64,000 nt of DNA. It comes from Armillaria gallica. Lineage: Eukaryota > Basidiomycota > Agaricomycetes > Agaricales > Physalacriaceae. The stretch covers positions 3,658,001 to 3,722,000 of the forward strand of contig JBANDB010000009.1 in NCBI GenBank assembly GCA_037576215.1, written 5' to 3'. Made by a program: the position numbers and the translations under genes. Of this stretch, positions 53,133 through 60,889 are shown piece by piece (within the stretch, counting starts at the first letter, position 1; each line of letters opens with the position of its first letter). The notes beneath the pieces are model-generated. The model was not told where the DNA came from, did not search any database, and saw only the letters and a program-made list of their open reading frames with translations.

Positions 53133-54149
53133 TGAGTGATATATCACATCAATCTATGTATCAATAGCGATATAGAGCATATATATGTCGGGTCAGAGCG
53201 TGCATTGACCTTTGGGCCAGGGAAGACGACTTTGATCTGACTAATGCCGTCATTCGCTATGACGGCTCCTTATGATGTTTTCAGCTCCGTAGCATCCGCT
53301 TTCCCCTCCAGCGCTCACGATGTGTGCGCGGATAGCCCAATTTTCTCGAACTCAAGTTCGGGTATGGCAATAAATACTTAGAATTGGCACCACACCGCCC
53401 GTGACAAATCATAGATTCAATCAATGGCACCTTTGGACATACAATCAGTCTCGCTAATAACGTACAATAATCTAATCCTACCTATCCAGTCACCCTCTCA
53501 GTGACATGGAATTAAATTCTTTCACCAAAAAGTGTGCATTGATTCTTGAATTGAGGTGGTATGGCTTCCTTCCAATCCAGATGACGAACACCTCCATCTC
53601 TTCCTCTACACTTGTACGAATGGCGCGCTTAAATATCTGTCCCATGACATGATAGATCCGATCTTCATATTGCGTCTGTTCATTTCCTCGGTGCAAGGCC
53701 CAAAGTATTTCGCGGATCCTGTGAGCAACAAATTGGAATGAGCAGCAGAAAAGAAGAGCCAAAACTTGAACTTACTCACCAATCCTCCGGTCGATCATCT
53801 GCCAGTTGAGAACACTGTTCAGCTGCCACAGAAATGCTCGTTCACCGTCGTGGTCTTTCTCGAGAGCCTCAAGTGGGGGAGGACAATCCTTATATTTTTT
53901 TATTTCGTGAGCACATCGTTGACCGATGGCCCATATGTGACCCTTGCGGCAGAGACGGTAATGTCGGACTCTGAGATATAGTCGTAAGTCTCCAAGAAGC
54001 CTTCGGTTTAGCGCTCATTAAACGATCCGATGGATTCGCAGGGGGATTCAAGAGTAAAGGATTCGTCCCACTCATATCTGTCAAGGTATACACGCCCAAG
54101 AGTCAGACAGATTGAGAATGTCGGCCTAAACGTTAGCGATGAGCCAAGG
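53133..54149. other. Unassigned region downstream of acetate kinase
   Basis: A minus-strand coding-like stretch at about 53490-53980 can be spliced to read HIWAIGQRCAHEIKKYKDCP then ERAFLWQLNSVLNWQMIDRR, but I cannot match it to a family. It lies directly after the broken GH7 and may be the foreign DNA joined to it. Confidence 0.35.
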
Positions 54150-54794
54150 TGAGAGACGAGAAAGAGATGGAAGCCTGCCTGTCCGTTGATGAACTTGATG
54201 CCGTGCGGACACTGGCTGTCGCAATAACCAGTTCCATACTTGGCACCAGCCTTGTTGGCAGGGAACCTGGAAACCCCACCATCGGCATCCATATCGACGA
54301 AGTACAGAGCGCCGTTGAGACCGCAAGGGAGGGCCGACATGTCGACGTCGAAGGTGAATTCCTGGTTCTTCAAGTTGAACATTTGGTACTTGCTGCCGAT
54401 TGAGTCGAGCAAGTACACGCGCGAGCCTATATTGGTGGAAGATGGTCCTTGGGTGACGAACTTTGAGGTGAGTGCGTCGCTGCTGGTCGTAATACCGTAC
54501 GTGCCAGCGTAGTCGACGCCGTCCAAAGCACAGTTGCTTGCGCAGGCGATGGGATCGGGGCAGATAGACGTATCCCAGGTATTTCCGGTGTAGCAATTGG
54601 TGGAACTCGAAACCTGATGTATCCAGCGCCAGTTGGAATCGAGTGTAATCGAACTGGACTGAGCCGTACAGCTGCCACTTGATGTACATGTCTGAACTCG
54701 GAGTGTGGGATGGTTCTCCGCTGTTAGAGTCCGGACTTGCTGGCCGTAGACAACAGCGGAGAGAGCGAGAAAGAAGCGCGATCTTGGGAAACAT
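54150..54794 (-). pseudogene. Truncated GH7 cellobiohydrolase (N-terminal ~45%)
   Basis: Begins MFPKIA with a signal-like start, mature [20 protein letters not shown]. It continues [109 protein letters not shown] and [20 protein letters not shown]. In GH7 enzymes the catalytic ExDxxE motif follows within about 25 residues; here homology stops after ADIL and the rest of the catalytic domain is absent. Also one frame slip in the signal peptide. A TATA-like box (TATAAAAA, minus strand) sits near 54840. Processive cellulase activity is therefore not expected. Confidence 0.78.
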
Positions 54795-55961
54795 GGTGAA
54801 TGTTTGCTGGACAACAAAAGAGCATTGGTGCCGTCGTTTTTTATACAAGAAGGATTCTGAAAAAATAGTTGACACAGCGCGTTTATGATATTGGACAGTG
54901 GCACATCAAGTCTTGAGCCTTAAGAGGTATAGCAAGATGATACCGACAGGTGCCCGGTACGACAGACGGTTCCCGAGGTGACTCCGCATTTGTTAGTGAT
55001 AAGCGTTTGGATACTAATTTGGATTTCCTTTGCCGGATCCCAGTAATCGTGGGCCGGATATCGGACCAGTCTCCGAGGTAAGATTACTCCGAGTCATAGC
55101 CTGGTACCTACCTTCAACTACTCGATTGTGAGGTGAGATTCCTGTCCCGGGAAAATCTGTCTGTCACTGAAAGTATTGCTTTGAATGCCCCACGACCAGT
55201 TTGACCGGCATTGAGGGCATAACATGAATGGATTTCTTGGTACGACAACCTATGAATAAGGTACTCATCACGATTCTTGCATCTGTGTCCCGCTGATAAG
55301 ATGAATCGTCGGATAAATGTATCTGGAGGCAAAATCTTAGACATGGACACCACAAACACCAAGACGAGAGGAATCTTACTAAACGGCCCTAGCACTGCGT
55401 CAAATTGTCACTAGGATATCAACTCTATCCCGAACAGAGAGTCCACTTTGTTGCTAAAATTTGACGGACAAGGGCGCGGACTTGTTCTCCCTTGTCATAA
55501 AGAGAGAAAAACAGAGAGCGACCGACAAATTGCAGACATGGATGGCAGAGATTAACACACCGTGGTGGTCAAGTGAATAAAGTATAGTACGTAGCGACGC
55601 GTCAAAACAAGTACCATATAAAGTGATGGTGATCGTAAAAAAGGTCATGAAAGGGAACGGAAGCTGTATAAGTAATTTCGTAACGCGAGATTACCGTGGT
55701 TTCTGGGGAGTATGGGAGCTCGTTATAGAGCATGAGTGACAAGGTCTTATTAACACCCAGACAGAGAGGTAGTGACAGGCGCTCCAGAATTTATAATCAG
55801 ATCTCTGCAACGAGAATTGAATTATAATACGCTGTTGAACAGAAACTTCATTGCTCACCGTGAGAATAGTACACGCATTAGTACAAACTGAGGAGACGTT
55901 AATTGAGGGAATCATTGCTGGTGGCACAAAGGTATAAGACGAATAGATAAGGAAAACAGTA
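54795..55961. other. Intergenic, nothing recognised
   Basis: About 1.2 kb between the GH7 remnant promoter and the 3' end of the zinc-cluster gene. Only short open frames without family traits. Confidence 0.4.
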
Positions 55962-57431
55962 CTACAAATGTTCGGTGAGGCCTGATGGTGATATTACCAA
56001 GCTGGGTCTATCCAAGTTGGGGTCAATGACAGGGTAATAAGTTGGCGTGCTGCTCTCGTAGATCGGGTTCGATCCCATGGGAGGATGCTGGGGCGGAAAG
56101 AAATAAGGTACAGAGAACATAGAGGTTTGTGTTTGTGGCGGTAGCTGCTCCATCACAAGTTGCTCCACTGGTTGTATAGAATCAGACAATGAACGTCTTG
56201 GCTCTGTGAGACCAGCCATCACGTTGACGACGATGTGAAAAGAAACCAGTGCTAAATGCACATACCAATAATGCCAGAGGAATCCTCGGATCGGTGGTTA
56301 CATAGATGAGGATATCCGGCGGAAGAGCATGCTTTACACGCCCGGTCAATGCACTCGTAATTCTTACGGTCGCAATGTGTGCAAGGTCTAAAAAAATAAA
56401 GTGCATGAGATTCACACATTACCGACAGCTGGGGCCGGCCTACCGTTCACCATTACATCGTATCTTGTCCCGCCTATTATCCTCATCAGATCTAAAGCTA
56501 CCTGGCAGGCAATCTCCGACCTACCTGCAATTAAGACAGGCCTGCAATTGAATAAAATAAGCAAAGGTGCGCGGACAAACACAATACACAAACCTGCTTG
56601 ACTCGATGGCCGTGCCCACCCTGCCTCTTGGTATTGACACACTCTTCATTGGCATTTCGACACGGACCGCATGGTCTTAGGTCATCACAGCGTCTATTGG
56701 CCTTCCGACAGCCTTCGCAGCGCAGCTTCGTTGATTTGGGCCCTCGCTCCAACATCACACACTCCTTCTTTCGGATCACGCATCGCCCACAAGGCCGCTG
56801 CTCGTCGCACTTGGGCAGCTGTTTTAGACCCCTAGCCACGGATAGCACGATGAATGACATACCTTCTTGTTGTCCTTACGACACGCTTCGCACGCGAGCT
56901 TGACCCGCTCCCTACCATTGGGTCGGGTACTCCTAGACGGAAGGGAGTTTTGTTGAGTGCCCCGCCGTGCGTCTGCATTAGCATCGACACAAGATACTCC
57001 CATTTCCCGGCAACGTTGGCATGGCGCTCCATCTTCACACCGCACCCTCGCCCTCCGACAAGGTCCGCATCCCGTTACGCACTGATCTGGTGTATATCCC
57101 TTCTTCGTGCATACGCCACAAGGTCTACCGGCCCATATGAGAGGGTATCACGCAGCGTAATCGAGCTAGGATCAAACCTGTTCCCATCGCACCCGACCTT
57201 GTCACGTCTAGAAGAAGAACTTAGTGTAACTTCATCGGTAAGAGAAGGATGCATTACCTGCAAGTTGAGCAAGCCTGCGCTGGAGATCAATCGCGATCTG
57301 ACAGTAGGACAACGAAACATGCATGCCTGGTCCGTGCGTTTGCCGTTCTTTAATGCCTTTCCTAGCGAAAAGCTGAGGAGAGACATGTCCACCGGCTGCT
57401 GGTGCGGGAGAAGGTGGCTAGGCGGATTCAT
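55962..57431 (-). CDS. Protein with five tandem Zn2Cys6-type zinc-cluster modules
   Basis: Spliced, the protein contains five consecutive binuclear-cluster patterns. They start CSTCRRDKVGC, CGPCRRARVRC, CEACRKDNKKC, CEGCRKANRRC and CLNCRRDKIRC; each continues with a x5-C-x2-C-x6-C half such as DEQRPCGRCVIRKKEC (the first has a longer last gap). A sixth half module, CKACSSAGYPHLC, follows. Introns cut modules 1 and 5 at the same place (after CxxCR, phase 2). The N-terminus from MNPPSHLLPHQQPVDMSLL is short; the C-terminal part is Pro/Ser/Tyr-rich (SMFSVPYFFPPQHPPMGSNP) and might be an activation tail. No fungal transcription-factor middle domain is seen. Classic Zn2Cys6 factors have one cluster, so a multi-site DNA- or RNA-binding role is an inference. 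The first intron seems to start GC (gcatgc). Confidence 0.75.
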
Positions 57432-57599: not shown

Positions 57600-59318
57600 T
57601 TATCGCGGGTCTCCAGTAGCCACGGTAACGCTGCTCATCGTAGCTGTGGGTTCAGCTACGCTCGCAACAAATCGTTGGGTAAGTAGAGCACTAGGTTCGC
57701 TGACAACAGGGGAAGAAACAACTGCCGCAAGAGCTCCAAGGTTTGTTCCAGTTTTCACCTTAGTTCCCGCAGTGCTACTGTTTCCACCTGTAGAACTACC
57801 CCCTGCGCTATACACGGCAATGTAATTGATGTTCCATTTTGCAGCTAAACAGAATGTCATCGAGATGAAGGAGAAGACGCGCGAGTATGCACTAACTCTT
57901 GTAATTTTTTGGATCCTTGACGGCATCAGAGCATGTTCCTGGGCACCCCGCCCCAGAGTAAGTTGGGTTAGCCCAGTCACCACATAGCGTGGTGTCGATA
58001 ACCAAGTTGTGCCCCTTGAAATGTGTCCCCGTATCGCAAGAAGCACTATTTGGCAAGAAAGCTGCAGGTTTGCCCCAATTCGCAAGATTGGGTCTCCCAG
58101 CAGTAATATCATCAGGTATACTCGTCTTCGGAAAGTGCCAGATCTGAATTCCTTTGTCATTCCACAGGTGTGCAAAGATACCACCTCCAATCTCATTGAA
58201 TTGCTTGCCATAGCTATAGTTAGGATTGGCCGTGTCCACCATTCCACAACCAGCATTATCGCTTCCACCGCTAACGGCACATTGTTCATTGTTGAGTTTT
58301 GCAGTCATGCCGTCGCTTGCCTGTATCGTGCATCCGTCGCCGGTGTGGAATGTATACTGGTTGGCGTTAGCGTTGTGAACGTTTTCTAGGACATCAATTT
58401 CGCCTATTAAATATTCAGCTGAGATCGTCCGATAAGAAAGCATGAATACCCTGATTGGGCCAGTTGTCACCAACTGTCCTAGAAAGCAAAATGTAAGCAC
58501 CATGAAAACTAGCTTCATATCATAGGTCCTACCACCAAGCGGGCCAGACAGAGCACCCGTAAGGCATGGCGGAGAAAGACGCAATGAACAGTCCACTATC
58601 ATATTTCTTGACTGAACTGATACGGACACTGGACATCCAAGAAAACGTTAATCTGAGCCGGAAAGGTGGATGTACATCAACATACGAGTCGCGGTTTTCA
58701 CCATCGCCTAACGCCGTCGTATCATCAACAGCGAGCGTTACGGTGCCATCATCACCAACGAACGCCAACTTCTTTACTGCCGCCTCCATAGTCTGATAAT
58801 TGACAGAACCATTAGTCGGATCTGACTCTGACCAGTATTGCCACTTCCTATCACATGTATTTCAGCCAGTGAACATTATTAAAGACTAGAAATACGCACT
58901 CAGAGTTCAGGAAGTCTTTGCCTTTGTACATATCGAGCAACTGATACGTTCCGCCTGTGGTTTGGTCCGCAGTATCCATCGCACCCGCAGTAGTTACTAG
59001 ATTGGCTGGCGCAGCAGCAGTAGGAGCACCAGGATCGGTGGTACCTGGCGTAGCGACGACTTGTTGCCGTTTAAGAGGTGTATATTTCGACCTGTCTACA
59101 TCTGATAAAGTCGTGGGAGAGCCGTTGATAAGAATTGTTGCTCCAGGATCTCTTTTATGAACAGAGCCGGAGATTGAAGAAGACAAGCGCGCTTCGAGAT
59201 GATCCAGAGAGTTCCTGCTCTTGGGTGCAGCTCTATTTTGCGCAGGATGAACGGGTAAGGAAAGCGAGAGTGTCGTAAACAGAATGACCGAGAGTGTCAG
59301 CTGGAATATGGGGAACAT
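57600..59318 (-). CDS. Secreted GH16 beta-glucanase-type hydrolase A
   Basis: Signal peptide MFPIFQLTLSVILFTTLSLS, then a disordered pro-region (KSRNSLDHLEARLSSSISGS) and the catalytic domain: YQLLDMYKGKDFLN, QYWSESDPTNGSVNYQTMEA, GLFIASFSAMPYGCSVWPAW, GEIDVLENVHNANANQYTFH with the ExDxxE catalytic acids, IWHFPKTSIPDDI, LVIDTTLCGDWANPTYSGAG. After NINYIAVYS it has an extra Ser/Thr-rich tail of about 60 residues not present in its neighbour. GH16 enzymes of this type cut beta-1,3(4)-glucans in fungal or plant walls. Five introns; junctions keep frame. Confidence 0.85.
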
Positions 59319-60889
59319 AGCAGGGAAGGATTGGACAAGAAACCAGTTCTTGAAGCTCGGCGTCCGAGTGGGTGTGACCAGCACCTGAGACCCGGAGATG
59401 AATGAGAGTAAGATTGACAATATTGAGTCCGTGCATCCTTTATGTAGACCGCAGGACAGGGAGGGACCTCATCACTCCTGCTTAGAGATGTAACGAGAGT
59501 TGCGATGCCCTTGAGCGCGATTTTGCGGCCAAATTAGCCAGGCCGGTCGACCATGGGGATTGTTGATGGTGACGAAAGGCCCGAGCGGGAATCAGCGGAG
59601 AGCAATCAAGCCTCAAGACCGGTGCACACTAAGTAGCGTCGCTTGATTCTAGTCCTAAGTGTGAGGTACAGGCTGTCCAGGTTGCACCGCCGTCGGTTCT
59701 GACTCCTGAGAATCAAGGACTACTGTAGATCTCCGCCCTAAATGATGCTAAGAGTGGAAAACTTCCAGCAATTCACGCAACGCAAGCACTGTGCGAGATA
59801 GCGCTGCGTCTTTGTGTACAAACGCGTCAAAGGCGATGGCCCAACCTGAAAGTACGCGCAAGCCGCAGGCGGCGGCAGATGCGTTCCGGTTGAGAGTCCG
59901 ATCCACTAATTAGGGTTCACCGACCGTCAAATCTACGTTTGTCTTCATCTTTCTCCATGCATCGTTCAGCAGATTACTTAGCTCTGTGTATCGAGCCTCG
60001 ATTCTGGCATCTGTTCGATGCGCGCATATGCAATTGGGGTCACTGCGGTCCTTGACCAGATGCTGTTGAATCTTCTCGACATCCAGGTTGATTTGACGCG
60101 AACTTCGAGTTCTGCAGCGGGTCTCCTTGTGTATCTTTCTAGGTAGTGGCGTGCACGAGGAAGTGTGGAATTGTGATCTTCGACGAGCCAGGTACCAGGT
60201 ACCATGCTTATTGTCTGCTCGTGCTGCCAACGTGCTGCGCCTTCCTCAAGTCGCAACAAATTTCTTCGCTTCATGAGTTGCCATCAGATCTCCTATAGCA
60301 TTGCAACCGCCTCATCAGATAGTGACTCGAGTACAAAGCGTCTCCTTCGGCGACACGAGGCAAATGCGATGACCATCGCCACATTTGAACAATGGCGACC
60401 ACACACGATATTGTTTGCCGAAAATCTCGTAACTAGGGGACAGACAAGCCCAATGTGCGTACTTACAATAAGCCGACGAAAGAATCAGTTGAGGAATTCT
60501 GCACTGCGCTACTCTCGTAAATGATTCACACGAAAATTGAGAATAGAAAGACGACCTCGTGCTAAAGAAGTTCTTCCTACTCGTTCTTGTTCTGACTTGG
60601 GCAAATTATCACGTCAAGTGTGTTATATTCCATGAGCACCACGGCTCGTTACGAACCGCCATGCATAATATACCTCTATAAACTCGTGTAAAGTATTATA
60701 ACCCTAGTAAAAACCCAATCCTACAGCAAGCAGATACCGAAAAATAACAGAGAATAGACCAGCACGATCAACGTTAGAGGAATAAGAATAGATGCAACCG
60801 GGCATCGCAATGTATGCGTTTATGATACAGTGCGGGAGGAGAAAACGGACGTGAAATGATCGTAATAGGCATGTTTGAATGCGCTCTCC
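59319..60889. other. Intergenic between GH16 paralogues
   Basis: About 1.6 kb. Short frames on both strands at 59910-60524 overlap each other and have no family likeness; I do not call them genes. Confidence 0.4.

What the first reader, a model, noticed from the sequence alone, without database searches (positions are those of the whole stretch)
55962..57431. Five tandem Zn2Cys6 binuclear zinc clusters in one protein
Modules 2-5 fit C-x2-C-x6-C-x5-C-x2-C-x6-C exactly, and module 1 differs only in its last gap; a sixth half cluster follows. Known Zn2Cys6 regulators carry a single cluster with a linker and coiled coil, and no middle homology region is seen here. Introns in modules 1 and 5 sit at the same codon position, which suggests growth by exon duplication. 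It could read extended or repeated DNA sites as a monomer, bind RNA, or store metal. This is my best candidate for something undescribed.
Basis: partly seen in the sequence, partly recalled or inferred. Interest (0 to 1): 0.8.

Follow-up and report, generated by a model that had tools for sequence, protein, structure and literature searches.

The report
Five-cluster zinc protein of mushroom fungi
This fungal gene encodes one protein carrying five zinc-cluster modules of a kind that fungal gene regulators usually carry singly, and the same five-part layout recurs in many mushroom-forming fungi, which suggests an unstudied regulator that may grip DNA at several points with a single chain.

Summary
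On the minus strand, 57431-55962, nine exons encode a 346-aa protein with five Zn2Cys6 clusters (Pfam PF00172) and no other Pfam domain found. The model matches an uninterrupted relative at 332 of 346 positions across all eight junctions; intron 1 is GC-AG. No second copy was found in the genome. Searches gave 113 proteins that I count as family, many partial; the named ones are, as far as I recognise them, Agaricomycetes (nine orders looked up). The modules are not interchangeable: each position keeps its own signature, and linkers M1-M2 (3 aa) and M3-M4 (13 aa) have one length in 37 of 37 five-module sequences. M3 plus its linker matches the DNA-binding domain of fission yeast Pho7, including Asn at the Gal4 Lys18 position and two basic phosphate-contact positions. 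Best reading: a regulator that binds DNA at several sites with one chain, in two blocks (M1-M2, M3-M5). The 'sixth half cluster' looks more like a separate four-ligand zinc site. Literature searches found no description. Function is untested.

The parts
55962..57431 (-). whole coding span, nine exons, 346 aa
   Evidence: 332 of 346 identical to P0001; no second copy found in own genome
57327..57431 (-). exon 1, N-terminal tail (residues 1-35)
   Evidence: junction agrees with P0001
57275..57326 (-). intron 1, GC-AG, 52 nt, phase 0
   Evidence: gives P0001's sequence, my first GT donor did not
57258..57274 (-). 17-nt microexon of module 1 (ACSTC)
57079..57271 (-). module 1 (residues 37-66), interrupted by two phase-2 introns
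56989..57069 (-). module 2 (residues 70-96)
56759..56892 (-). module 3, Pho7-like (residues 129-155), one phase-0 intron after RKDNKK
   Evidence: same intron site in unspliced relatives
56720..56758 (-). M3-M4 linker (residues 156-168), 13 aa, basic residues at the Gal4 R46/R51 and Pho7 R326/R331 positions
56639..56719 (-). module 4 (residues 169-195)
56351..56538 (-). module 5 (residues 212-238), with 17-nt and 30-nt exons as in module 1
56294..56338 (-).
56010..56039 (-). C-terminal short motif YYPVIDPNLD (residues 322-331) in a tail of low model confidence

Best explanation
A conserved, so far unnamed Agaricomycetes nuclear regulator that binds DNA as a single chain through several zinc clusters at once. 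Shown by sequence: five Zn2Cys6 modules, each kept distinct across species; two blocks (M1-M2 joined by 3 residues, M3-M4-M5 joined by 13 and by 16 or 17 residues) separated by a variable linker; M3 with its linker matches the DNA-binding domain of Pho7. Inferred: each module inserts its C-x2-C-R-x5-C end into the major groove over a CGG-like triplet, M1/M2/M5 with Lys or Arg at the Gal4 Lys18 position and M3/M4 with Asn as in Pho7; the fixed linkers set the triplet spacing within each block; the variable linker lets the blocks reach two half-sites; and the tail, with a short Tyr-Tyr-Pro-Val-Ile-Asp-Pro motif in some members, recruits a partner protein. No dimerisation helix is needed because the further clusters are in the same chain.
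For: Five PF00172 stretches. Module-specific conservation in 37 five-module sequences: residue at the Gal4 Lys18 position is K 37/37 (M1), R 37/37 (M2), N 37/37 (M3), N 35/37 (M4), K 37/37 (M5); linkers 3 aa 37/37, 13 aa 37/37, 17 aa 34/37 and 16 aa 3/37. M3 against Pho7 chains 6o19 and 6e33, E 3.2e-8 and 4.1e-8, gapless from residue 124 to 168. Pho7 has Asn299 in place of Gal4 Lys18 and Arg326/Arg331 in place of Gal4 Arg46/Arg51 (PMC5559640, passages); those two positions are Lys or Arg in 43 of 46 and 45 of 46 sequences here. Foldseek's 21 PDB matches are, by title, zinc-cluster DNA-binding proteins or kinetochore complexes that hold one, Pho7 first. Only Zn_clus matched in 39 of 39 members; no helix over 9 residues in the model.
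Against: No DNA binding, expression or localisation was measured. No Foldseek match passes E 0.001 (best 0.012), and the model's pTM is 0.32, so the placement of the modules relative to each other is unknown. M3/M4 lack the Lys that reads CGG in Gal4, and some modules could be structural only. The paper passages I read left open whether Pho7 binds as a monomer; that later structures show this is recalled. The 37 and 46 sequences are those with exactly five regular-expression matches, so worse-preserved members do not enter the counts.
Confidence: 0.7

Rival explanations
1. Only some modules bind DNA (M3 and perhaps M5); the rest are structural or bind other proteins, so the chain behaves like an ordinary one- or two-cluster factor. 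This overlaps in part with the best explanation.
For: M3 resembles a solved DNA-binding domain at E 3.2e-8, the other modules only weakly. In five-module sequences M3 is the most conserved module between species (0.70 non-Cys identity) and M4 the least (0.49).
Against: In the five-module sequences the loop keeps basic residues in every module and three of four linkers have fixed or nearly fixed length; a module that had lost DNA contact would be expected to drift.
Confidence: 0.35
2. Zinc or other metal store, metallothionein-like.
For: 33 Cys in residues 33-260 of the window protein, capacity about 11 zinc ions if all sites fill (inferred).
Against: Non-Cys residues, basic loops and linker lengths are strongly conserved; the array is basic (52 K/R to 27 D/E); no second copy was found.
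Confidence: 0.04
3. RNA-binding array.
For: Repeated basic zinc modules in one chain; nothing direct.
Against: The best-scoring solved relatives are DNA-binding domains, and M3 keeps the positions that contact DNA phosphates in Gal4.
Confidence: 0.05
4. Gene-model artefact: neighbouring single-cluster genes or exons wrongly joined.
For: Several short exons (17, 17, 30, 30 nt) and one non-canonical GC donor. 83 of 129 retrieved proteins do not show exactly five modules, though these include partial models, unspliced reading frames and non-members.
Against: P0001, reported from a 1486-nt contig, has the same spliced sequence over its whole length; 46 of 129 retrieved proteins show five modules.
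Confidence: 0.02

Closest known systems
Schizosaccharomyces pombe Pho7 DNA-binding domain (PDB 6o19, 6e33)
   Same: M3 and its linker: DNKKC loop, D-x-x-RPC-x-RC, Asn at the Gal4 Lys18 position, basic residues at Pho7 R326 and R331
   Different: Pho7 is 738 aa with one central cluster; here five clusters in 346 aa. Full-length Pho7 was not compared
Gal4-type Zn2Cys6 regulators (Gal4, Put3, Leu3, Hap1, Ppr1)
   Same: Cluster fold and spacing; M5 gives weak hits to Gal4 and Leu3, M3 to Put3 and Hap1, M2 to Ppr1
   Different: Those typically act as homodimers through a downstream coiled coil on paired CGG triplets (PMC5559640, passages); here five clusters, no long helix in the model, no PF04082
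Two-cluster proteins: Pleurotus ostreatus PoZCP55 and the C11 gene of this genome
   Same: More than one Zn2Cys6 in a chain
   Different: PoZCP55 has two clusters with septin domains (PMC7295025, section 11 read); the C11 frame has two clusters about 200 codons apart, not a tight array
Dual-specificity factors (C2H2 plus zinc cluster; PMC5415576)
   Same: Several DNA-binding units in one chain
   Different: Defined by domains of different classes (passages); here all five are of one class

Membership tests
Zn2Cys6 (PF00172) domain family | C-x2-C-x6-C-x5+-C-x2-C-x6+-C and score above Pfam cut-off | tested here: met
   five stretches; 106.7 bits (352-aa draft) and 105.7 bits (P0001) against cut-off 21
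Zn2Cys6 (PF00172) domain family | binds two zinc ions per cluster | not testable with these tools
   would need metal analysis
Gal4-type regulator | one cluster followed by linker and coiled-coil dimerisation helix | tested here: not met
   five clusters; no helix longer than 9 residues in the AlphaFold2 model of P0001 (the tail has low confidence, so a coiled coil there is not strictly excluded)
Gal4-type regulator | middle homology region PF04082 (common, not universal) | tested here: not met
   0 of 39 members match at E 0.01
Pho7 orthologue | Pho7-type DNA-binding domain | tested here: met
   M3 only, E 3.2e-8
Pho7 orthologue | full-length Pho7 layout (738 aa, one central cluster, conserved C-terminal segment 629-722) | tested here: not met
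   346 aa with five clusters; layout from PMC5559640; full-length Pho7 was not aligned
'Transcription activator of gluco...' (name that UniRef gives some members; cut off in the listing, completed from memory as gluconeogenesis) | PAS domain and ERT1/AcuK-like layout (recalled) | tested here: not met
   only PF00172 in 39 of 39 members; name seen

The most novel reading that the evidence does not exclude
A further way of using the fungal zinc cluster: not a dimer of single clusters and not a monomer with one cluster, but a single-chain array in which five distinct clusters, in two blocks with set spacing, read a composite site of up to five triplets, as C2H2 fingers do in animals. It would have existed early in Agaricomycetes and been kept since.
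Probability: 0.3. Interest if true: 0.8.

Novelty: new variant of a known kind. Interest (0 to 1): 0.6.

Why it matters
Zn2Cys6 proteins are the largest class of fungal regulators (recalled) and are described as reading DNA one triplet per chain, mostly as dimers. A conserved single-chain array would show that the fold can be used like C2H2 fingers, would make triplet-recognition rules testable within one protein (Lys, Arg and Asn variants side by side), and would point to a regulator shared by many mushroom-forming fungi that public annotation leaves as a hypothetical protein or gives an automatic name.

Tried and rejected
Rejected: my first model of intron 1 (34-nt GT-AG, 352 aa), which searches used as query and as the window's row; the 346-aa model with a GC donor replaced it after P0001 was seen.

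Corrected while checking: I had noted that 12 of 28 zinc-cluster loci of this genome are split after the first CxxC. One search shows only that in 12 of 28 classified loci (30 fetched of 54 hits; 2 unclassified; one of the 28, L008, is this gene's own M2) no CxxC lies in frame upstream. One search finds the same phase-2 split as in M1/M5 in 2 of those 12 (L006, L013), a phase-1 split nearby in 3 (L011 and L012, which are one gene, and L028) and none at that place in 7. L006 also has an 18-nt microexon around its CxxC (read by eye). So the shared intron is not unique, but it is not common either.

Weak: the tree of single modules (239 rows of 27 positions, longer rows cut to that length, rooted arbitrarily) groups M3 (46 of 46, support 0.89), M2 (44 of 46, 0.996), M1 (46 plus 3 M5, 0.84) and M3+M4 (92 of 92 with one M5 and Pho7, 0.75), but M4 and M5 do not form clades and the M1+M5 group (91 of 92, with 2 M2 and 2 outgroups) has support 0.26.

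Led nowhere: NCBIfam, a library for bacteria and archaea (0 families for three members); Pfam on neighbouring open frames gave only GH7 (1 of 4); a first expression for the Cys3His motif hit the wrong place and was redone; one search was a faulty form. Gene neighbourhood in other species was not examined: no other fungal genome with coordinates was at hand.

Full report
What is there. The minus strand from 57431 to 55962 encodes a 346-aa protein in nine exons. The eight introns are 50-62 nt; intron 1 is GC-AG, the others GT-AG. That P0001 comes from a transcript is inferred; if the source's gene caller splices, it could be genomic.

The clusters. Five Zn2Cys6 clusters lie at residues 37-66, 70-96, 129-155, 169-195 and 212-238. 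Pfam finds Zn_clus only, in five stretches (E 5.9e-31 for the 352-aa draft; E 1.3e-30 for P0001).

Genome and relatives. The window lies in an 86-Mb assembly of 28 contigs. No second copy was found: of six protein matches five are pieces of this gene and one is a weak match to another cluster (E 5.1e-5). The nearest named relatives are Desarmillaria and Guyanagaster, so the host is probably an Armillaria-like fungus (inferred). Three searches gave 54, 64 and 117 proteins at E 0.001, 129 distinct in all. In one search the E-values jump from 1.1e-19 (P0114) to 2.4e-11 (P0115), and I count P0001-P0114 without P0076 as the family: 113. Many are partial, badly modelled or unspliced. By a regular expression 46 of 129 show exactly five modules, 24 four, 14 three, 11 two, 33 one and 1 six (non-members included). 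The named family members are Agaricomycetes as far as I recognise them; I looked up ten species, in nine orders: Agaricales, Boletales, Russulales, Amylocorticiales, Gloeophyllales, Gomphales, Hymenochaetales (two), Jaapiales and Sistotremastrales. I saw no Polyporales name, but the search is not exhaustive.

The modules are individuals. In 37 five-module sequences (36 of 76 proteins then held, plus the window's draft; the other 40 did not give exactly five matches) the linkers M1-M2 and M3-M4 have one length (3 and 13 aa, 37 of 37), M4-M5 is 17 aa in 34 and 16 in 3, the window protein among these, and M2-M3 runs from 22 to 87. So there are two blocks. At the Gal4 Lys18 position the residue is K (M1, 37/37), R (M2, 37/37), N (M3, 37/37), N (M4, 35/37), K (M5, 37/37). 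The same module is more alike between species (0.49-0.70 without Cys) than most modules are within a protein (0.22-0.35); M1 and M5 are the exception at 0.49. Related sequences are counted apart, so these are not independent events.

Link to Pho7. The best solved relatives by sequence are two chains of the DNA-binding domain of fission yeast Pho7 (6o19, E 3.2e-8; 6e33, E 4.1e-8), aligned to M3 and its linker without gaps. By fold they also come first, but at E 0.012 and 0.021, with no match under 0.001. In Pho7, Asn299 stands where Gal4 has Lys18, and Arg326/Arg331 where Gal4 has the phosphate-contacting Arg46/Arg51 (PMC5559640, passages read). Counted along the alignment, these two fall on residues 163 and 168 of P0001; over 46 sequences the first is K or R in 43 and the second R or K in 45. 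The passages left open whether Pho7 binds as a monomer; that the later structures show this is recalled, since that paper is not held.

The tail site. After M5 comes C-x2-C-x8-C-x-H-R. Of 46 sequences 33 have C-x2-C...C-x-H. Some of the others have Cys as last ligand: P0077 (Sistotremastrum) and P0079 C-x2-C...C-x2-C, P0060 (Rickenella) C-x-C...C-x2-C, P0080 (Agrocybe) C-x2-C...C-x-C; P0052, outside the 46, has C-x2-C...C-x2-C. Sistotremastrum and Rickenella lie outside the Agaricales-Boletales group (orders), so Cys may be the older state (inferred). This fits a four-ligand mononuclear zinc site better than half of a binuclear cluster. It is missing in the Russulales members P0018, P0027, P0028, P0029 and P0084 and in the unnamed P0036 and P0085; P0030 (Cyathus) keeps only the C-x-H half, and P0025 is a partial model in which the expression took the tail as a module. 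So the site is not essential to the family. Metal content is untested.

The C-terminal motif. A short motif like YYPVIDPN lies 18-42 residues from the end in 23 of 113 family proteins (81 have 60 aa or more after the last matched cluster); shuffled tails give 0.05 on average, at most 1, in 500 rounds. Shuffling ignores relatedness. None of the Russulales or Mycena members is among the 23. Docking of a partner is a guess.

Introns and origin. M1 and M5 share three introns (phases 0, 2, 2) that bound exons of 17 and 30 nt; M3 has one, M2 and M4 none. Proteins that look like unspliced reading frames of relatives show the same sites: after R(R/K)DNKK in P0069, P0070, P0071, P0073 and P0075; inside M1 before RPC in P0073 and P0075; before M5 in P0069, P0070, P0071 and P0074 (read by eye). 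The introns are thus probably old. As a control I looked at other zinc-cluster loci of this genome: the same split after CxxC can be drawn in 2 of the 12 loci that lack an in-frame CxxC (L006, L013), a split close by in 3, and 15 further loci besides this gene's own M2 are unsplit there (several are near-identical copies). With the M1/M5 likeness this favours duplication; the module tree is too weak to decide.

Structure. AlphaFold2 on P0001 with 39 sequences gives pLDDT of about 80-91 for ten-residue blocks wholly inside clusters, mean 66.8, pTM 0.32: folded modules, no fixed overall shape, no helix over 9 residues.

Known or not. Ten full-text searches (one of them, about Pho7) of open-licence PubMed Central papers turned up no description of a protein with three or more Zn2Cys6 clusters. 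I judged from listings, some cut short, and from passages or sections of seven papers; a look into PMC8893723 failed, and hits such as PMC4192604 were not opened. Nearest statements: a Pleurotus ostreatus census of 66 zinc-cluster proteins whose section 11 names one with two clusters, with septin domains (PMC7295025; its Figure 1 could not be seen and might show more), and a sentence on an Alternaria factor with two (PMC10305253, passage). A survey of fungal factors defines dual-specificity factors by different domain classes, not repeats of one (PMC5415576, passages). Subscription papers were not searched. The proteins are in public databases as hypothetical or under automatic names.

Verdict. 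A real, conserved family with a repeated-cluster layout: a new variant of a known kind. DNA binding is well supported by similarity for M3 and likely for the array; reading one long composite site as a monomer is plausible and untested.

Noticed in passing
L012:1036-2436 (G000:C11, locus range 2519228-2522317): A 466-aa open frame of the same genome with two Zn2Cys6 clusters about 200 codons apart, each split by an intron just after CNFCR: a second multi-cluster gene.
   Followed up: partly
G000 contigs C2 and C5: L017-L023, L030: A set of near-identical zinc-cluster genes (GAC(T/I)(R/Q)CKQVKMKCDF...CQRCKPKGYHC) at several places on two contigs; perhaps a mobile or recently duplicated group.
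   Followed up: no
window 54008-54919 (-): A glycosyl hydrolase family 7 gene (PF00840, E 1.9e-90) lies next to the finding.
   Followed up: no
window 57892-59468 (-): Three open frames of a neighbouring gene or genes without a Pfam match; the stretch GDWANPTYSGAGCPGTC recalls a GH16-type glucanase (recalled, untested).
   Followed up: no
P0053 (Ramaria rubella): A member with six clusters over 554 aa, so the module number can change; could also be a gene-model effect.
   Followed up: no
P0115, P0116 (unnamed metagenome sources): Proteins of 534 and 597 aa with two zinc clusters that I count outside the family.
   Followed up: no
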